This document shows positions 21,887 to 27,813 of a stretch of 64,000 nucleotides of DNA, piece after piece. The notes beneath the pieces are model-generated. The model was not told the origin of the DNA, did not search any database, and was given only the letters and a program-made list of their open reading frames with translations. Position numbers and translations under genes: made by a program. The stretch's first letter is position 1. Every line of letters starts with the position of its first letter. The stretch is taken from the NCBI GenBank assembly GCA_018402685.1, contig JAGYIJ010000001.1:124001-188000 (forward strand), given 5' to 3'. This stretch comes from Aquiluna sp. (lineage in GTDB: Bacteria > Actinomycetota > Actinomycetes > Actinomycetales > Microbacteriaceae).

Positions 21887-22546
21887 CTATTCGCTTTTGG
21901 CTAGCTGACCCTTCAAGATAACGTCGATGGCGACCCGCTTCGCTCCGTCTTTTTCAACGATTCGCTCGACTTCAAACACCTCGTGATTCACAAGGTTTTG
22001 CTTGGCCCAAATCTCTAATTCCTCGGGAGTTGGCAATACCTCTGGCATTGGAGGACCCCCAAAGCCCTCGGTGAGATTGCGCTTGGCATGCCAGACACCA
22101 AAGACCATTGCCCCCGGAGTAAGTTGATTGCAAGCGTTATCTAACGCCTTTGCCAAAGACGCCGCCGGCAGCTGCAAGTAGGCCACAACTAGCAGGTCAG
22201 CTTGCAGTTCGAACTTGGCGCTCAGGGCATCGCCGTGAGTGGCGATAGTGTTTTCGGCTAACTCAGCGTGCTTGGCACGCTTGAGAAATTTATCCAGCGC
22301 GACTTGGGAGATTTCAACGTTCTCCACCTGCCAGCCCCTTTGAGCAAACCAGAGTGCGTTTCGACCCTCGCCTCCGGCGAGGTCGATCATCTTTGAAGGC
22401 GCTAGGTGCTCGAGGTGCTCGACCACGAACTGGTTAGGTTCTAAAGACCAAACAAGCTCCTGAGATGCATAGCGTGCATCCCAGGAGCTTGCGTCAGAAT
22501 TAGGGCCTGACAACCGCAAGGCCCAGCTGGTTTGAAGCGTTGGCAA
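21887..22546 (-). CDS. Class I SAM-dependent methyltransferase (TehB-like)
   Basis: Predicted small-molecule methyltransferase. After WDARYASQELVWSLEPNQF come the SAM motif MIDLAGGEGRNALWFAQRG and the post-motif VENVEISQVALDKF; the protein ends GQLAKSE. The start is uncertain: the first possible start (22546) lies inside the 3' end of the rhodanese lipoprotein gene, giving 219 aa, and no ATG or GTG lies between that gene's stop and the conserved WDARYA. The WDARYA coding region is also a 17-bp palindrome. Substrate unknown. Confidence 0.65.
   Translation of the reverse strand: MPTLQTSWALRLSGPNSDASSWDARYASQELVWSLEPNQFVVEHLEHLAPSKMIDLAGGEGRNALWFAQRGWQVENVEISQVALDKFLKRAKHAELAENTIATHGDALSAKFELQADLLVVAYLQLPAASLAKALDNACNQLTPGAMVFGVWHAKRNLTEGFGGPPMPEVLPTPEELEIWAKQNLVNHEVFEVERIVEKDGAKRVAIDVILKGQLAKSE
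22453..22491. repeat. Near-perfect 17-bp inverted repeat at the start of the methyltransferase gene
   Basis: AAGCTCCTGAGATGCA (22454-22469) and TGCATCCCAGGAGCTT (22475-22490) pair with one G-T-type mismatch around TAGCG, and the flanking C/G at 22453/22491 extends it. It begins 9 bases beyond the rhodanese stop on the minus strand and is followed there by GTTTGGTCTTT, so it could act as a weak terminator or attenuator for the rhodanese transcript. Confidence 0.6.
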
Positions 22547-22874
22547 CGGAACCGCCGTTTACCAACTCACCGCTGAAGCCCATGTCGCGCATGATGTTAA
22601 TTGCCTGTCCCGCTCTGTTACCGGAGCGGCAGTAGATGTAGTAATCCTCGGATAGGTCCAGGGTGGAAAGCTGCTGGCGGAAATCGGAGTCAGCAATTCC
22701 AATCAGAACTGCACCCTCTAGGTAGCCGGAGTTCCACTCCTCTACGGTGCGAACATCAATGACTGATGCGTAGTCCGCTGCATTCATTGGCTCTGCCTCG
22801 GCGCAGGCGGTAAGCCCGGAAACTGCAAATACGGCAACGATGCTGGCGATCAAAAACTTCAAAAGCTTGTTCAA
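22500..22874 (-). CDS. Rhodanese-domain lipoprotein
   Basis: Predicted extracytoplasmic sulfurtransferase of 124 residues. The signal peptide ends SGLTAC with lipidated Cys24. A single rhodanese domain follows: VIDVRTVEEWNSGYLEGA, then the active-site loop YCRSGNRAG with Cys82 and the closing MGFSGELVNGGSV. It is divergent from the CstR-like regulator gene across a 73-base region holding a palindromic operator, so it is probably controlled by that regulator. It would act on sulfane sulfur outside the membrane while the plus-strand genes act inside. Confidence 0.85.
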   Translation of the reverse strand: MNKLLKFLIASIVAVFAVSGLTACAEAEPMNAADYASVIDVRTVEEWNSGYLEGAVLIGIADSDFRQQLSTLDLSEDYYIYCRSGNRAGQAINIMRDMGFSGELVNGGSVANASNQLGLAVVRP

Positions 22875-22890
22875 CGTGGTGTCCTTTCAG

Positions 22891-22906
22891 ATACCCCCTA
22901 GGGTAT
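22891..22906. promoter_or_regulatory. CsoR/CstR-type operator 1
   Basis: The palindrome ATACCCCCTAGGGTAT lies between the divergent rhodanese lipoprotein and regulator genes, 16 bases from the former start and 41 from the latter. C-tract/G-tract palindromes flanked by AT are the known operator type for the CsoR/RcnR/CstR family. A near-identical copy occurs at 27356-27371, and no other copy was noticed in the window. Confidence 0.75.
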
Positions 22907-22947
22907 GTGCTACAGTAACACAAGTCAAGCCAATCAAGGAGCGCGCC

Positions 22948-23205
22948 GTGCAAATTCCTCAGGAAGAACTAGAGGCAGTCAAGAAGCGACTAGCCAGGGC
23001 CCAGGGTCAACTTGGTGGAATCCAAAAGATGCTGGAAGAGGGTCGGGAGTGCACTGACGTGCTCATGCAACTCTCAGCAGCGCAGGCTGCTATCAGCCGC
23101 GCAGCCTTTGCGCTAATCACCACCGGCATCACCCACTGCGCAGCGGATGAGCAGGGCCAACAAGACCTCAAGAAGCTTGAAAAAGCCTTCTTGTCACTGA
23201 GCTAG
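22948..23205 (+). CDS. CsoR-family repressor, CstR-like (persulfide-sensing type)
   Basis: All-helical DUF156 repressor of 85 residues. GTG 22948 is preceded by AAGGAG at good spacing; earlier in-frame codons have no coding support. KKRLARAQGQLGGIQKMLEEGREC is typical of the family. Copper-sensing CsoR uses Cys-x24-His-x3-Cys. Here Cys35 and Cys64 are kept 29 residues apart but position 60, where the histidine should be, is Gly. That pattern matches CstR, which senses per- and polysulfides through two cysteines. The rhodanese genes directly downstream agree with sulfur sensing; copper genes are absent. Confidence 0.8.
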   Translation: MQIPQEELEAVKKRLARAQGQLGGIQKMLEEGRECTDVLMQLSAAQAAISRAAFALITTGITHCAADEQGQQDLKKLEKAFLSLS

Positions 23206-23221
23206 AAAAGAAAGAGGAGTA

Positions 23222-23539
23222 ATGGCTGAGGAAGTATCCATCAACGAGTTAGAGGCCGCAATCGCTCAAGGAGCTTATGTTCTTGACGTCCGCGAAGCGT
23301 GGGAGTTTGAATCGGGTCACGCGCCAACGGCCCACCACATCGCACTGAACTCGGTGCCAGACCAACTGAACGAGATTCCAAAGGACCAGCAGGTCTGGGT
23401 CATTTGCCAGTCTGGTGGCAGGTCAATGACGGCAGCTAACTACCTAGAGGCCAATGGCTTTGACGCAGTTTCGGTAGCCGGTGGCACCGGTGCCTGGATT
23501 GGTGCCGGCAAAGACGTTTCATTTGAGGCAGCTCTCTAA
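23222..23539 (+). CDS. Single-domain rhodanese (sulfurtransferase)
   Basis: Cytosolic rhodanese-fold protein of 105 residues that carries sulfane sulfur as a cysteine persulfide. VLDVREAWEFESGHAPTAHHI is the N-terminal half and VICQSGGRSM the active-site loop with Cys62; it ends with the usual VAGGTGAWIGAG segment. AGAGGAG precedes the ATG. It lies 16 bases after the regulator gene, and its TAA overlaps the next ATG (TAATG), suggesting translational coupling. Confidence 0.88.
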   Translation: MAEEVSINELEAAIAQGAYVLDVREAWEFESGHAPTAHHIALNSVPDQLNEIPKDQQVWVICQSGGRSMTAANYLEANGFDAVSVAGGTGAWIGAGKDVSFEAAL

Positions 23540-23872
23540 TGGGCCTTTTTGACATCTTCAAGAAAAAGTTTGAATCCGTCGCTCCTCAAAAGGCGAAGGA
23601 GCTCCAAGATGCGGGCGCGGTTCTAATCGACGTTCGCGAATCTCACGAGTACCGCTCGGGACACGCGCCCGGAGCCAAAGCACATGGCTCTCGGGGTAAT
23701 TGAGCGCAGGCTCAAAGAGATCCCCAAGGAGCGCCAGATTCTAGTTATTTGCCAGTCCGGCATGCGCTCCTCGCAGGCCGCAAAGATGCTGGCAACAAAT
23801 GGCTATCAGGTAGTAAACGTATCGGGCGGCATGACCAATTGGCAGCGCTCAGGATTGAAGGTAATTAGGTAA
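23539..23872 (+). CDS. Second single-domain rhodanese (frameshifted)
   Basis: Another cytosolic rhodanese, about 110 residues. ATG 23539 gives MGLFDIFKKKFESVAPQKAK and then VLIDVRESHEYRSGHAPGAK; the frame then fails. Removing one A from AAA 23677-23679 gives GAKHMALGVIERRLKEIPKE and the active-site loop ICQSGMRSSQAA, ending VSGGMTNWQRSGLKVIR. The short N-terminal extension before the domain is lysine-rich. Start and stop both overlap neighbours as TAATG, so three genes appear coupled. The indel lies in a short A run, so it is probably an error. Confidence 0.82.
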
Positions 23873-25515
23873 TGAAGGTTCTAATCGTCGGTGGCGTAGC
23901 CGGCGGCATGTCTGCCGCGACCAGGCTAAGAAGACTCAAGGAAGACGCTGAAATCATCGTCTTCGAACAAGGTCCCCACGTCTCCTATGCAAACTGCGGT
24001 TTGCCATATCACATTGGTGAGGTCATCAAAGAAGAAAGCGATCTGCTACTGCAGACTCCAAAGTCTCTGCACGATCGCTTCCGACTCGATGTGAGGGTGA
24101 ATAACCGAGTTGAAAGCATCAACCTAGAGAACAAGACCGTCACCGTTTCAAACCTCGAGACTTCTCAGAGCTATGAAGAGAGCTACGACAAGCTGATTCT
24201 CTCCACCGGAGCAAAGCCAAGAATGGTGCCAATCCCAGGCCTTGAGCGAGCTCACGTGCTTCGCGACGTGCAGGACGCCGTCAAGATCAAAAAACTGGTG
24301 GATGAAAAACAGATCAAAAGTGCCGCAATCATCGGCGCTGGCTTCATTGGTGTCGAGCTAGCTGAAAACCTTCAGCACCGCGGCATCGAGACCACCATCG
24401 TCGAGTTCCGCGAGAACATCCTGCCTCAGTTTGACCCAGAGATGATTGAGCCAATGCAACAGGTGCTGGTTGAAAACGGCATCAAGCTGGCACTGAGTGC
24501 AGAGACCGAAGCGGTGTTAGAAGACACTCTGAAACTAAAGGACGGCAGGGTCATCCCAGCCGATCTAGTGGTCGCCGCAATTGGCGTGGTGGCAGATAAC
24601 CGTCTGGCCATCGACGCTGGATTGGACATCGGCTCAGCCGGAGGCATATTGGTCAACGACCAGATGCAAACCTCCAACGAGCATGTCTATGCCGTTGGCG
24701 ATGCCGCAGAGAAGACCAGCTTTATCACCGGTCAAAACCAGATGATCTGGCTGGCAAACCTTGCCAACCGTCACGGCCGCTTGGTTGCAGATGTCATTGC
24801 CGGCGAAACCGTGAAGGCAAGGCCCTCGATAGGCACCGGCATCATTGGTGCCTACGGCATGGCCGCCGCCCTCACCGGAATCACCGAGGGGCTTGCAATT
24901 CGAATGGGCATTCCCCACCAAATCATCCACCTGCACCCAAGCAATCACGCCGGCTACTACCCCGGGGTTGAGCGGGTGAGCCTAAAGGTCTTGTTTGATC
25001 CAGCAACCGGCAAGATTCTCGGAGCCCAGGGCATCGGTCGTGATGGAGTCGACAAGCGGATTGACGTGATTGCAACAGCAATCTATGCAGGTCTCACCAT
25101 CGACGACCTAATGAACCTAGAGCTCTCCTACGCACCAGCCTTTGGATCCGCCAAGGATGCCATCAACCAGACCGGATATGTTGGCAACAACATCAGAACC
25201 GGAAAGACCGAGAACATTCAGTGGCACGAGCTCGAAAAAGCTCAGGCCGATGGCGCAATGGTCGTTGATGTCAGGACCGATGGTGAGCACCAAGAGGGCA
25301 ATATTCCAAACACCAAGCTGATCCCAGTCGATGTATTGCGTGAGCACGTTGATGAGCTAAAGGGCAAGGAAATCATTGTTACCTGCGCTGTTGGACAGCG
25401 CGGTCACACCGCAGTCCAACTACTTCGCGGTTACGGCATCAAAGCAAGAAACCTAGATGGTGGCTACACCACCTGGCGAACTGCCATGGATGCTCGTCAA
25501 AGAGCTAGCACATAA
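23872..25515 (+). CDS. CoA-disulfide/persulfide reductase-like flavoprotein with C-terminal rhodanese domain
   Basis: FAD- and NAD(P)H-dependent oxidoreductase of 547 residues with the CoADR-rhodanese architecture. FAD binding: VLIVGGVAGGMSAATRLRRL; the single active-site cysteine is Cys42 in SYANCGLPYHIG; NAD(P) binding: AAIIGAGFIGVELAENL; second FAD motif: HVYAVGDAAE. The dimerisation domain is followed by a rhodanese domain (about 455-540) with Cys505 in TCAVGQRGH. Characterised relatives reduce CoA-disulfide, CoA-persulfide or polysulfide; here it probably takes sulfur handed over by the upstream rhodaneses. Direct assay would be needed to choose the substrate. Confidence 0.85.
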   Translation: MKVLIVGGVAGGMSAATRLRRLKEDAEIIVFEQGPHVSYANCGLPYHIGEVIKEESDLLLQTPKSLHDRFRLDVRVNNRVESINLENKTVTVSNLETSQSYEESYDKLILSTGAKPRMVPIPGLERAHVLRDVQDAVKIKKLVDEKQIKSAAIIGAGFIGVELAENLQHRGIETTIVEFRENILPQFDPEMIEPMQQVLVENGIKLALSAETEAVLEDTLKLKDGRVIPADLVVAAIGVVADNRLAIDAGLDIGSAGGILVNDQMQTSNEHVYAVGDAAEKTSFITGQNQMIWLANLANRHGRLVADVIAGETVKARPSIGTGIIGAYGMAAALTGITEGLAIRMGIPHQIIHLHPSNHAGYYPGVERVSLKVLFDPATGKILGAQGIGRDGVDKRIDVIATAIYAGLTIDDLMNLELSYAPAFGSAKDAINQTGYVGNNIRTGKTENIQWHELEKAQADGAMVVDVRTDGEHQEGNIPNTKLIPVDVLREHVDELKGKEIIVTCAVGQRGHTAVQLLRGYGIKARNLDGGYTTWRTAMDARQRAST

Positions 25516-25518
25516 AGC

Positions 25519-25545
25519 AAAAGGTCCCTTAGGGGGCCTTTTTCT
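25519..25545 (+). terminator. Intrinsic terminator of the sulfur operon
   Basis: AAAAGGTCCC, loop TTA, then GGGGGCCTTTTT (with one G-T pair) followed by CTTT, directly after the flavoprotein stop and just before the convergent serA stop. It also looks usable on the minus strand for serA, where A and T runs flank the stem. Confidence 0.75.
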
Positions 25546-27141
25546 TTAGTACTGCTCCACTAGCGCTACGGCCCTGACGGTGTCGGCCTCAATGGCACTA
25601 CGTAGTTGTTCCAAGACATCAGGTTCGACAGGTGAGTCGATAGTGATGACGCTCAGAGCTTTGCCGCCCTTTTGCTGACGCGCAATCGTCATTGCTGCAA
25701 TGTTGATGTTGGCCTCAGCGAATGCCTTGCCATAGACGGCAACGATTCCGGGTCGGTCCTGGTAGACCATAACGACCAGGTTCTCTGCCATCGCAAGCTC
25801 AACGTCATAGCCATTGATGGAAACGATCTTCTGGTGGTGCTTGGGGCCAATTACTGTTCCACCAGCCGAAACCACACTGCCATCAGACAGCACCGCCTTC
25901 AACGTGGTGACGTTGCGATATTCATCGCTAACGGTGTCCTGAACCAAACGAACATCAACCCCGCGCTGCTCTGCCATTAGTGGTGCGTTGACGTAGGAAA
26001 CCTGCTCGGTCACCATGGTCTGGAACAGCCCCTTGAGTGCAGCCAACTTCAAAACAGTTACATCGTGTGCGGCGATCTCTCCCCTGGCCTCGAACTCAAT
26101 CGAGACGATTGAGGTGTGGGCAAGGCCTGCCACCAACTGGCCGAGCTTCTCGGCCAGTGGGATACCAGGCTTGACCGAAGAATCGATTTCGCCACCCGCA
26201 ACATTCACCGCATCCGGGACCAAGTCCCCAGCGAGTGCGAGACGAACCGATCTTGCTACCGAGACACCGGCCTTCTCTTGGGCCTCATCGGTGGAGGCAC
26301 CAAGGTGAGGGGTGACCAAAATGTTGTCCAGGGTTAGAAGTGGTGAATCCTTTGGTGGCTCGTTCACAAAAACATCCAGGCCGGCTGCGCCGATCTGGTT
26401 GTTCTTCAAAGCCTCATAAAGAGCGTCCTCGTCGATGATGCCACCGCGAGAGCAGTTGACGATGCGCAAAGAAGGCTTTGCGATCTTGAATTCGTTGGTG
26501 GAGATCATTCCAGTGGTCTCGGGAGTCTTTGGGATGTGGATAGTGATGAAGTCACTGCGCTTCATCATCTGCTCCATGTCCACAAGCTCAACACCGATTT
26601 GCTCGGCCCTGGCCTGGGTCACGTAAGGGTCATAGCCAATCAAAGTGGCACCAAAACCAGCGAGTCTTTGCGCAACCAGGGTTCCGATGCGGCCAAGGCC
26701 AATGATTCCAATGGTCTTTTCATATAGCTCGATGCCGGTGTATTGGCTTCGCTTCCAAGCTCCGGCCTTCAACGATGCGTGGGCATCAGGGATGTGACGG
26801 GCGAGACCCATGATGTGAGCAATTGCAAGCTCTGCGGCAGAAATAACGTTGGAGGTTGGCGCATTGACGACCATCACACCGTGGGTGGTTGCCGCCTTGA
26901 TATCAACGTTGTCTAGACCAACGCCGGCCCTAGCAATGACCTTGAGCTTTGGAGCTGCGGCGATTGCCTCGGCATCCATCTTTGTGGCGGAGCGAATCAA
27001 AACCGCATTGGCGTCTTTTAGAGCAGGCAAAAGTGCGGAGCGATCAGCTCCGTCGACGTTGCGCACCTCGAAATCGGGACCGAGGGCTTCAAGAGTTGCC
27101 GGGGATAGTTCCTCAGCGATTAAAACGACTGGCTTAGACAA
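25546..27141 (-). CDS. serA: D-3-phosphoglycerate dehydrogenase
   Basis: First enzyme of serine synthesis, long form with ACT domain (531 aa from TTG 27141). Substrate and NAD domains include RAGVGLDNVDIKAA, GIIGLGRIGTLVAQRLAG, the catalytic VNCSRGGIIDEDAL and VTPHLGASTDEAQ; an intervening ASB domain and a C-terminal ACT domain (VMVYQDRPGIVAVYGKAF) follow. No ATG is available. TTG 27141 opens SKPVVLIAEELSP, the usual N-terminus; a TTG 15 codons upstream would add an odd extension. In this genome it lies between the two halves of the sulfur regulon. Confidence 0.93.
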   Translation of the reverse strand: MSKPVVLIAEELSPATLEALGPDFEVRNVDGADRSALLPALKDANAVLIRSATKMDAEAIAAAPKLKVIARAGVGLDNVDIKAATTHGVMVVNAPTSNVISAAELAIAHIMGLARHIPDAHASLKAGAWKRSQYTGIELYEKTIGIIGLGRIGTLVAQRLAGFGATLIGYDPYVTQARAEQIGVELVDMEQMMKRSDFITIHIPKTPETTGMISTNEFKIAKPSLRIVNCSRGGIIDEDALYEALKNNQIGAAGLDVFVNEPPKDSPLLTLDNILVTPHLGASTDEAQEKAGVSVARSVRLALAGDLVPDAVNVAGGEIDSSVKPGIPLAEKLGQLVAGLAHTSIVSIEFEARGEIAAHDVTVLKLAALKGLFQTMVTEQVSYVNAPLMAEQRGVDVRLVQDTVSDEYRNVTTLKAVLSDGSVVSAGGTVIGPKHHQKIVSINGYDVELAMAENLVVMVYQDRPGIVAVYGKAFAEANINIAAMTIARQQKGGKALSVITIDSPVEPDVLEQLRSAIEADTVRAVALVEQY

Positions 27142-27208
27142 TGGCTGACCTAACGGTGCAATCTTCGGTGATGGGATTGCCGCCAAGTCTAGCGAGAAAA
27201 AGTTTTAG

Positions 27209-27331
27209 TTAGTCTCTTTCGCACTGGCAGCGGTCGGACTCTGGAATACCGTCGAGAGCTTCTTCGATGTGTTGTCCGCAACCTTGCCAGGTTGGCTTTG
27301 AGCATTCGTAGCACATAACTGCTGAGCACAT
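27209..27331 (-). CDS. 40-aa cysteine-rich protein (possible metal/redox knuckle)
   Basis: A short frame from ATG 27331 that reads MCSAVMCYECSKPTWQGCGQ followed by HIEEALDGIPESDRCQCERD. It has six cysteines plus His21, in the pattern C-x4-C-x2-C-x7-C-x2-H then C-x-C. I recognise similar short MC-A-V-C-x2-C-x-K-x-TW-x-GCGQH proteins in actinobacteria, all without known function. A zinc or iron binding knuckle or a thiol redox role is inferred. GAAAGG lies 13 bases upstream, rather far. The CstR-type operator 2 begins 25 bases upstream, shared with the divergent DUF6069 gene. Confidence 0.7.
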   Translation of the reverse strand: MCSAVMCYECSKPTWQGCGQHIEEALDGIPESDRCQCERD

Positions 27332-27355
27332 ATTTGGAAATAAACCTTTCAATAG

Positions 27356-27371
27356 ATACCCCCAGGGGTAT
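27356..27371. promoter_or_regulatory. CsoR/CstR-type operator 2
   Basis: ATACCCCCAGGGGTAT matches operator 1 at 14 of 16 positions and has 7-bp arms. It lies between the divergent cysteine-rich mini-gene and the DUF6069 gene. A -10-like TAATAG follows on the plus strand, so binding here would block both promoters. Confidence 0.75.
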
Positions 27372-27426
27372 AGTGGCAATAATAGTGTAAGACTCGTTGC
27401 ACTACAAACAAAGAAACGGAGTTTTT

Positions 27427-27813
27427 ATGACTCGCAAAGATCTTCTAAAGCCTTTCGCAATTGCGACCGGCATGGGCATTGTCGCCGTGCTAGCGGTTTG
27501 GGCAATTGCAGTAGCACTGGGAGTTGATTTCACCGTCTCCACTCTCGGCATGCCAATTCCGGTTGCTGCCTTCGTTATTTTCTCGGTATTTGGTGGGCTG
27601 GGAGCCTGGTTGGTGAGCGGTTACCTGCTCAAGACAGCCACCCCAAAAAAGACCGGCCAGATCGTTGGCTGGTTCGTGCTGATCGCTTCAATTGCAACGC
27701 CGCTTTCCGGCACAACCGACTTTGCCGCCATTTTCTGGATCCAAGCAACTCACTTCGCAATCGGTGTGCCGCTAATTATGGCGATGGCAAAGCACCTGCC
27801 AGAAACCAAATAG
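27427..27813 (+). CDS. DUF6069-like membrane protein
   Basis: Integral membrane protein of 128 residues with four hydrophobic segments (about 9-32, 42-67, 77-95 and 105-120). The arrangement, with a GVDFTVSTLGMP loop after the first segment and a THFAIGVPLIMAM last segment, resembles DUF6069 proteins, function unknown. I take ATG 27427 with CGGAG 6 bases upstream; a TTG 10 codons earlier is less likely. Control by the operator at 27356 links it to the sulfur module, where a transport or sulfur-stress role is possible but unproven. Confidence 0.65.
   Translation: MTRKDLLKPFAIATGMGIVAVLAVWAIAVALGVDFTVSTLGMPIPVAAFVIFSVFGGLGAWLVSGYLLKTATPKKTGQIVGWFVLIASIATPLSGTTDFAAIFWIQATHFAIGVPLIMAMAKHLPETK

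What the first reader, a model, noticed from the sequence alone, without database searches (positions are those of the whole stretch)
22500..27813. Split CstR-like sulfur regulon with two near-identical operators flanking serA
Two 16-base palindromes, ATACCCCCTAGGGTAT (22891) and ATACCCCCAGGGGTAT (27356), lie in the only two divergent intergenic regions of this block. One serves a CsoR-family repressor gene and a rhodanese lipoprotein gene; the other serves a 40-aa cysteine-rich gene and a DUF6069 membrane gene. The structure is seen directly. That C/G-tract palindromes are CsoR/CstR operators is established. That one repressor joins the rhodaneses, persulfide reductase-like enzyme, mini-protein and membrane protein into one sulfane-sulfur response is inference. 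I have not seen this exact membership described.
Basis: partly seen in the sequence, partly recalled or inferred. Interest (0 to 1): 0.8.

Follow-up and report, generated by a model that had tools for sequence, protein, structure and literature searches.

The report
Persulfide-stress regulon with conserved cysteine mini-protein
A freshwater actinobacterium appears to switch on sulfur-detoxifying enzymes together with a tiny, unnamed cysteine-rich protein through one sulfur-sensing repressor, and the same pairing of DNA switch and tiny protein recurs across dozens of related genera, which makes the mini-protein a good candidate for a new sulfur or zinc handling protein.

Summary
Both palindromes are real and exact. 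The genus is Aquiluna (Microbacteriaceae). The genome shows one CsoR-family protein and three strict operators. The third, outside the window, precedes a YgaP-like membrane gene.

The repressor has the two-cysteine CstR pattern without the copper histidine, as do 93 of 93 CsoR-family ORFs (88 distinct) found in related loci. The main operon (repressor, two rhodaneses, CoA-persulfide-reductase-like enzyme) resembles known CstR operons: a known kind.

The new part is the 40-aa cysteine protein. Its genes have the exact operator within 300 bp upstream in 8 of 12 Aquiluna genomes and for 96 of 150 genes elsewhere in the family (at least one case in 34 of 45 genera). No Pfam or NCBIfam family and no significant PDB sequence match was found. 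After its last invariant Cys comes a Cys or a nearby His in 161 of 161 genes.

DUF6069 is a local neighbour, not a conserved target. serA is probably co-transcribed with the mini-protein gene. I favour a persulfide-induced, zinc-clamped sulfane-sulfur acceptor or carrier. Control is well supported by comparison; the chemistry is inferred; the structure job never finished.

The parts
22891..22906 (.). Operator 1, 16-bp palindrome ATACCCCCTAGGGTAT between the rhodanese lipoprotein gene and the repressor gene
   Evidence: a matching site lies upstream of csoR in 13 of 14 Aquiluna csoR genes, the 14th (G007) being cut by a contig end
27356..27371 (.). Operator 2, 16-bp palindrome ATACCCCCAGGGGTAT between the mini-protein gene and the DUF6069 gene
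   Evidence: conserved upstream of the mini-protein gene in 8 of 12 Aquiluna genomes that have it
27369..27374 (+). -10-like TATAGT towards DUF6069 that overlaps the right half of operator 2
   Evidence: sequence; over 97 sites upstream of mini-protein genes the three bases after the palindrome run A62% - N - T59%, which makes TAnnnT from inside the right half-site in 58 of 97. A plain sigma-70 consensus scan listed no promoter here
22948..23205 (+). CsoR-family repressor of CstR type, 85 aa, GTG start; Cys35 and Cys64, Gly at the copper-His position
   Evidence: PF02583 4e-22; alignment of 13 genus members; nearest solved chains include CsoR 4m1p and 7mq1
22500..22874 (-). Rhodanese-domain protein with a lipoprotein-like N-terminus (LTAC box, read by eye)
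   Evidence: PF00581 1.4e-10
23222..23539 (+). Single-domain rhodanese
   Evidence: PF00581 1.9e-15
23539..23872 (+). Second single-domain rhodanese, in two frames in this assembly
   Evidence: one frame in 8 of 8 genus relatives where both halves were found
23872..25515 (+). CoA-disulfide/CoA-persulfide reductase-like flavoprotein with C-terminal rhodanese domain, 547 aa
   Evidence: PDB 3icr E=1.4e-152 and CoAPR 8a56 E=3.8e-147
27209..27331 (-). 40-aa cysteine-rich mini-protein MCSAVMCYECSKPTWQGCGQHIEEALDGIPESDRCQCERD
   Evidence: no Pfam/NCBIfam family at E<=0.1; homologues in 131 of 299 family genomes and beyond (64 of 396 phylum genomes)
25546..27186 (-). serA (D-3-phosphoglycerate dehydrogenase), 22 bp after the mini-protein gene on the same strand; probably read through from operator 2
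   Evidence: same order in all 12 Aquiluna genomes with the mini-protein; no terminator-like site between them
27427..27813 (+). DUF6069 membrane protein, divergent from the mini-protein gene; possibly under operator 2 in this genome
   Evidence: PF19545 7.7e-16; over the cut-off in 2 of 22 Aquiluna genomes

Best explanation
This is a CstR-like, persulfide-responsive regulon spread over three sites. One dithiol repressor (Cys35/Cys64) sits on a 16-bp palindrome whose right half often overlaps the -10 box, and so blocks transcription. When persulfides or polysulfides rise they modify the two cysteines, the repressor lets go, and three sets of genes are made: (1) repressor, rhodaneses, CoA-persulfide-reductase-like enzyme and a rhodanese lipoprotein; (2) the 40-aa mini-protein with serA behind it, and in this genome perhaps DUF6069; (3) a YgaP-like membrane protein. 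The mini-protein is a core target. I propose that Cys7, Cys10, Cys35 and Cys37 (His in other members) hold one zinc as a clamp, and that the invariant Cys2 and Cys18, with His21, take up or pass on sulfane sulfur between rhodaneses and the CoAPR-like enzyme. Shown by sequence comparison: operators, conserved positions, sensor-residue pattern, gene content. Inferred: DNA binding, inducer, zinc, sulfur transfer, serA co-induction.
For: Single PF02583 match in the genome. Three strict sites, all intergenic; the 12 weaker places with up to 2 mismatches all lie inside ORFs. Operator near the mini-protein gene: 8 of 12 genus, 96 of 150 rest of family within 300 bp, nearest site a median 39 bp from the start codon (n=104); at least one case in 34 of 45 genera and 71 of 109 genomes outside the genus. 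Controls in the same loci: 144 of 2445 other mechanical ORFs >=100 aa, 1115 of 25800 random 300-bp stretches. Genome level: 114 both, 13 site only, 17 mini-protein only, 155 neither of 299 (not corrected for phylogeny). CsoR-family ORFs in these loci: 93 of 93 (88 distinct) have Cys-[GAST]-Cys and never His at the copper position; the same script reads Cys-His-Cys in the copper-type CsoR of L352. Neighbours, 150 mechanical ORFs: rhodanese 18, PF02583 7, Pyr_redox_2 7, metallo-beta-lactamase 6, TauE 4. In Aquiluna the CoAPR-like gene (11 of 22) and the YgaP-like gene (8 of 22) were found only in genomes with the mini-protein. S. coelicolor ScCsoR binds ATACCn6GGTAT and is released by polysulfide; its csoR/rhodanese gap carries the site (PMC7533328, passages). 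E. faecalis CstR controls RhdA, RhdB and CoAPR (PMC9405070, passages). Mini-protein after Cys35: C37 71, His 87, both 3, neither 0 of 161 genes; 69, 80, 1, 0 of 150 distinct proteins.
Against: No binding, expression or metal data exist for these proteins. 4 of 12 Aquiluna and 46 of 150 other mini-protein genes have no operator (even the relaxed form) within 300 bp; 31 of 150 have none within 1.5 kb upstream and 19 of 150 none in the fetched locus. In the named set 16 of 80 have it within 300 bp and 36 of 80 anywhere in the locus, and none of the 6 Acidobacteria and Chloroflexi loci has one, so the protein also exists outside this control. Only 51 of 120 family loci and 29 of 80 named loci contain a CsoR-family ORF at all. 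The palindrome is not specific to sulfur sensors: in G148 it stands beside a copper-type CsoR and copper-type genes. The YgaP-like gene has the operator in 3 of 8 genomes. In the window the -10 overlap is better towards DUF6069 (TATAGT) than towards the mini-protein gene (TATCTA). No fold was obtained.
Confidence: 0.72

Rival explanations
1. The mini-protein is a zinc-buffering, metallothionein-like protein: persulfide stress disturbs zinc, and the protein catches or releases zinc rather than carrying sulfur.
For: Cys or His at the presumed fourth ligand in 161 of 161 genes; a zinc-limitation response to sulfide in S. aureus (PMC5480029, abstract sentence seen among passages); metallothionein-3 binds sulfane sulfur and zinc through persulfides (PMC12618007, abstract and outline only).
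Against: The invariant residues suggest one four-ligand site, few for a metallothionein (recalled). Neighbours are rhodaneses, CoAPR-like enzymes and metallo-beta-lactamases; no zinc-transport family is among the 25 commonest of 110 families (the other 85 are not shown). The two readings overlap: zinc and sulfur roles can both be true.
Confidence: 0.25
2. It is a copper (CsoR) regulon and the mini-protein is a small copper binder.
For: The same palindrome lies beside a copper-type CsoR (LLEDHLSHC) and heavy-metal-domain/ATPase-like ORFs in G148 (gene names by eye, not scanned).
Against: 93 of 93 CsoR-family ORFs in the operator/mini-protein loci lack the histidine of the HxxxC motif that makes the Cu(I) site (PMC4528141, passages). 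Neighbours are sulfur enzymes. G148 has no mini-protein match. The window genome shows no second CsoR.
Confidence: 0.06
3. Operator 2 serves DUF6069 (or serA), and the mini-protein is incidental or a leader peptide.
For: The best -10 match inside operator 2 points to DUF6069; the mini-protein gene is directly upstream of serA in all 12 Aquiluna genomes that have it.
Against: DUF6069 was not seen beside operator 2 in the 7 relatives with it. In the 40 family regions no SerA match appears near the mini-protein, and its amino-acid sequence is conserved in Actinomycetota, Acidobacteria and Chloroflexi records, unlike a leader peptide.
Confidence: 0.04

Closest known systems
CstR operons (Staphylococcus aureus cst; Enterococcus faecalis cst-like operon RhdA-RhdB-CoAPR)
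   Same: CsoR-family dithiol repressor, small rhodaneses, CoAPR-like enzyme (PMC9405070 passages)
   Different: Three separated operators here; the mini-protein, YgaP-like gene and serA read-through are not in the passages I read on those operons
Streptomyces coelicolor ScCsoR circuit (csoR, rhodanese, persulfide dioxygenase, sulfite transporter)
   Same: 16-bp ATACCn6GGTAT operator, csoR/rhodanese pair sharing a site, two Cys 29 apart (Cys37/Cys66) (PMC7533328 passages)
   Different: No mini-protein among its four genes; here a CoAPR-like enzyme stands in the main operon. The large-genome family f6 (Streptomycetaceae only by my guess from genome size) shows no mini-protein in the 9 rows printed
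Bacillus licheniformis YrkD cluster
   Same: CstR homologue controlling rhodanese and other sulfur genes (PMC9918477 passages)
   Different: That cluster carries TusA- and DsrE-type proteins, named there as potential sulfur carriers; TusA was not found in 21 of 22 Aquiluna genomes, and the mini-protein may fill that place (inference)
Sulfane-sulfur-binding metallothionein-3
   Same: Small Cys-rich protein combining zinc and sulfane sulfur (PMC12618007 abstract)
   Different: Mammalian and far richer in Cys (recalled); no sequence relation claimed or tested

Membership tests
CstR (CsoR-like sulfurtransferase repressor) | CsoR/RcnR-family domain (PF02583) | tested here: met
   PF02583 4e-22, 78.8 bits, cut-off 22.8
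CstR (CsoR-like sulfurtransferase repressor) | Two conserved cysteines about 29 apart (Cys31/Cys60 in S. aureus, PMC9774590 passage) | tested here: met
   Cys35/Cys64 invariant in 13 of 13 genus members
CstR (CsoR-like sulfurtransferase repressor) | No copper-ligand His four before the second Cys | tested here: met
   Gly in 13 of 13 in the genus; G/A/S/T in 93 of 93 overall; positive control L352 reads His
CstR (CsoR-like sulfurtransferase repressor) | Genetic link to rhodanese/persulfide enzymes | tested here: met
CstR (CsoR-like sulfurtransferase repressor) | Release from DNA by per-/polysulfide with di-, tri- or tetrasulfide links | not testable with these tools
   needs purified protein
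Copper CsoR | Cys plus HxxxC copper site | tested here: not met
   GITHC: Gly in place of His
CoA-persulfide reductase / CoADR-RHD | CoADR flavoprotein with C-terminal rhodanese domain and Cys42 | tested here: met
   Pyr_redox_2, Pyr_redox_dim, rhodanese; 8a56 E=3.8e-147 over 2-537; Cys42 counted. Against: the NCBIfam CoA-disulfide reductase equivalog scores below its cut-off (464.6 of 578.8). Activity not tested
TusA sulfur carriers | TusA (PF01206) match | tested here: not met
   The mini-protein has no Pfam match. DsrE (PF02635) was not searched for
Metallothionein / zinc ribbon | Cys/His metal-ligand set with metal bound | tested here: inconclusive
   Ligand pattern with C/H swap in 161 of 161 genes; no family match, no significant PDB sequence match, fold not obtained

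The most novel reading that the evidence does not exclude
The mini-protein is the founding member of a new, widespread class of about 40-60 aa sulfur carriers: a zinc-clamped persulfide shuttle, induced by a CstR-like sensor, that takes the place of TusA-type carriers between rhodaneses and CoA-persulfide reductase in actinobacteria that lack them, and that couples persulfide stress to serine supply through serA in Aquiluna.
Probability: 0.33. Interest if true: 0.8.

Novelty: new variant of a known kind. Interest (0 to 1): 0.66.

Why it matters
The CstR-type operon itself is known. What is new is a small, unannotated protein family tied to this regulator's DNA site in 34 of 45 sampled genera outside Aquiluna and found in other phyla too. 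It gives a handle on an open question: which small thiol proteins receive and pass on sulfane sulfur in bacteria without TusA. At 40 aa it can be made, titrated with zinc and polysulfide, and its structure solved quickly. It also offers a genome-mining rule (operator plus M-C-x4-CxxC-x4-W-x-GCG-x-H) to find sulfur-stress regulons that annotation misses.

Tried and rejected
Copper reading: rejected as the main one on the missing His and neighbours. DUF6069 as a conserved regulon member: rejected. Weaker sites in the genome as further targets: all 12 places with up to 2 mismatches lie inside ORFs. sigma-70 scan of the block: no promoter listed at either operator. NCBIfam and PDB searches with the mini-protein: nothing significant. 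Structure prediction of the mini-protein from 60 sequences (A2): submitted and still not finished, so no fold search was made. In print: the mini-protein was sought by sequence fragments (one irrelevant paper) and by topic; no listing named such a protein in a CstR/CsoR regulon, but only titles and abstract starts were seen there and only open-licence PMC papers are held, so this is not proof of absence.

Limits: the Fisher test ignores phylogeny. The 299 genomes were drawn by the tool with a completeness floor of 85 that I set. The place list is truncated; of the places it lists, one at a contig edge (G215:C28) was not fetched. One search found 165 genes, kept 162 and dropped 3 that lack the core motif; one search read 161 of the 162. 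The 40 regions were picked by me from mini-protein hits to spread over genera after I had seen some site coordinates; searches then fetched the remaining listed places except that one, and 12 loci came straight. The named set is the best 80 of at least 584 matches and shares organisms with the family set. Many ORFs used as controls or neighbours are mechanical.
Full report
Observation. The two 16-bp palindromes are present at 22891-22906 and 27356-27371, in the two divergent gaps of the block. Gene identities: rhodanese with a lipoprotein-like leader, CsoR-family protein (PF02583), rhodanese, a second rhodanese in two frames, CoADR-RHD flavoprotein, SerA, a 40-aa cysteine protein without a family, and DUF6069. 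In the 1.48-Mb genome the strict form ATACCCN4GGGTAT occurs three times and the reversed-pattern control never. The third copy lies 10 bp before the likely start of a YgaP-like transmembrane protein, PF11127. The 12 weaker places with up to 2 mismatches all lie inside ORFs. The genome shows one PF02583 protein (completeness 93), so all three sites most likely belong to it.

Which sensor. In 13 Aquiluna members Cys35 and Cys64 are invariant and the residue four before Cys64 is Gly. Copper CsoR uses a Cys plus an HxxxC motif (PMC4528141, passages). A motif script over the operator/mini-protein loci found 93 CsoR-family ORFs (13 in 14 genus loci, 51 in 120 family loci, 29 in 80 named loci; 88 distinct), and 93 of 93 have Cys...[GAST]...Cys with no His. 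The same script reads His in the copper-type CsoR of L352, so it can see the other type. The closest solved chains include 7mq1, of the same sequence as 7mq2, which a review legend names as CstR (PMC9774590, passages); the best hit, 4m1p, is a copper CsoR that keeps the His in the alignment. In G148, a genome with the palindrome but no mini-protein match, the site stands beside a CsoR with the HxxxC histidine and copper-type genes. So the palindrome alone does not tell the sensor; sensor residues and gene content do.

Conservation of operator 1. 14 of 22 Aquiluna genomes have the repressor gene, one copy each. 13 have the palindrome directly upstream; the 14th gene (G007) is cut by a contig end. 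The order repressor-rhodanese-rhodanese-CoAPR with a divergent rhodanese lipoprotein recurs, with losses: G004 and G011 lack both small rhodaneses beside it, and G013, G018 and G019 lack the second rhodanese and CoAPR. This half is a known kind: the S. coelicolor circuit has the same type of 16-bp site in a csoR/rhodanese gap and release by polysulfide (PMC7533328, passages), and E. faecalis CstR controls two rhodaneses and CoAPR (PMC9405070, passages).

Conservation of operator 2. The mini-protein is in 12 of 22 Aquiluna genomes, each time just upstream of serA. 8 of 12 have the exact operator within 300 bp; the other four (G002, G005, G006, G014) do not. In the 7 relatives with operator 2 the ORFs beyond it do not look like DUF6069, and PF19545 passes its cut-off in only 2 of 22 genomes. 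So the conserved target is the mini-protein, and DUF6069 is a local neighbour. The CoAPR-like gene (E<=1e-50) is in 11 of 22 genomes, all with the mini-protein; the twelfth mini-protein genome, G016, is in 120 contigs. The YgaP-like gene is in 8 of 22, again all with the mini-protein, with an operator in 3 of 8. These genomes are related, so the small-sample tests are only indicative.

Beyond the genus. Among 299 family genomes (7 of them Aquiluna) the operator occurs in 127 and the mini-protein in 131; 114 have both, 155 neither (odds ratio 80, not corrected for phylogeny). The reversed-pattern control occurs in 1 of 299. For 150 mini-protein genes outside the genus, 96 have the exact site within 300 bp upstream, 104 a relaxed one, 119 one within 1.5 kb, and 131 one somewhere in the fetched locus; the nearest exact site ends a median 39 bp before the start codon (n=104 with the genus). 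Controls in the same loci: 144 of 2445 other mechanical ORFs and 1115 of 25800 random 300-bp stretches. 34 of 45 genera and 71 of 109 genomes have at least one exact case. In 80 named loci, mostly actinobacteria with 3 Acidobacteria and 3 Chloroflexi records, 16 have a relaxed site within 300 bp and 36 one somewhere in the locus, none of them in the six non-actinobacterial loci; one mononucleotide shuffle of all 80 loci gave 3 sites. Two contigs in this set match survey genomes by exact length (G006:C2, G002:C2), which names the genus. A Pfam scan of 150 neighbouring mechanical ORFs gave rhodanese 18, PF02583 7, Pyr_redox_2 7, metallo-beta-lactamase 6, TauE 4: a sulfur neighbourhood. The tool shows 25 of 110 families.

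Promoter architecture. Aligning 97 of the 104 exact sites on the mini-protein strand gives ATACCCC[CT]NGGGTAT followed by A (62%), N, T (59%), so that in 58 of 97 a TAnnnT begins inside the right half-site. The repressor would then cover the -10 box (inference). In the window this match is good towards DUF6069 (TATAGT) and weaker towards the mini-protein gene (TATCTA). A plain sigma-70 scan listed neither.

The mini-protein. Pattern: M-C2-x4-C7-x2-C10-x4-W15-x-G17-C18-G19-x-H21-x13-C35. Among 161 genes, the residues after C35 give C37 in 71, a His within the next five residues in 87, both in 3, neither in 0; among the 150 distinct proteins 69, 80, 1 and 0. Exchange of Cys and His at one place while the other three Cys never change is what a metal ligand does (general knowledge), so I infer one zinc on C7, C10, C35 and C37/His. 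C2, C18 and H21 are then left over and invariant in the 60-sequence alignment A2. Carrier analogy: YrkE (DsrE-like) and YrkI (TusA-like) are the potential carriers in the B. licheniformis CstR-type cluster (PMC9918477, passages). TusA was not found in 21 of 22 Aquiluna genomes, some of them incomplete. The exception, G006, has it inside an 831-aa protein that begins as a second CoAPR-like enzyme, and its mini-protein gene lacks the operator. This fits the idea that the mini-protein does a carrier's work beside CoAPR, but it is one case and an inference. DsrE was not searched for.

serA. The 22-bp gap and the absence of a terminator-like site between the genes suggest that operator 2 also affects serA in Aquiluna. 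Serine is the carbon skeleton for cysteine, which would trap sulfide released by CoAPR (general knowledge, inference). No SerA match appears in the 40 family regions, so this is a genus-level feature.

Verdict. Its enzymes are a known kind; its mini-protein is a new, broadly conserved member. Confidence is high for the anatomy, moderate for one repressor acting at all three sites, and lower for the mini-protein's chemistry. No experiment was done, and the requested fold never came back.

Noticed in passing
23539-23872; L007:5064-6972 and L007:8504-9578: Rhodanese 2 is split over two frames in this genome, and typA and ychF look split too (by eye); 8 of 8 genus relatives with both halves read rhodanese 2 in one frame, which points to assembly indels rather than biology.
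   Followed up: partly
L003:1501-1784 (G000:C2:497077): Third exact operator, 10 bp before the likely start codon of a YgaP-like TM protein, so perhaps a leaderless transcript with the -10 inside the palindrome.
   Followed up: partly
L351:1698-4193: 831-aa CoAPR-rhodanese-TusA protein with a further C-terminal part (DsrE-like by eye) in Aquiluna G006, the only TusA match in 22 genomes of the genus.
   Followed up: partly
L352:3896-4217: In G148 the same palindrome stands beside a copper-type CsoR (LLEDHLSHC) and heavy-metal genes (by eye), so CstR-like and copper sensors of this family can share one operator sequence.
   Followed up: partly
L353:3305-4079: In G229 an operator stands at the head of a thioredoxin-like gene (by eye) and a two-Cys CsoR-family gene without a mini-protein match.
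   Followed up: no
L125, L127, L132 and similar loci: Several genomes carry two mini-protein paralogues, a short form and a longer one, the latter often with a GFFxRLFGR-like tail; genes over 46 aa have a relaxed operator within 300 bp in 69 of 83, shorter ones in 35 of 67.
   Followed up: partly
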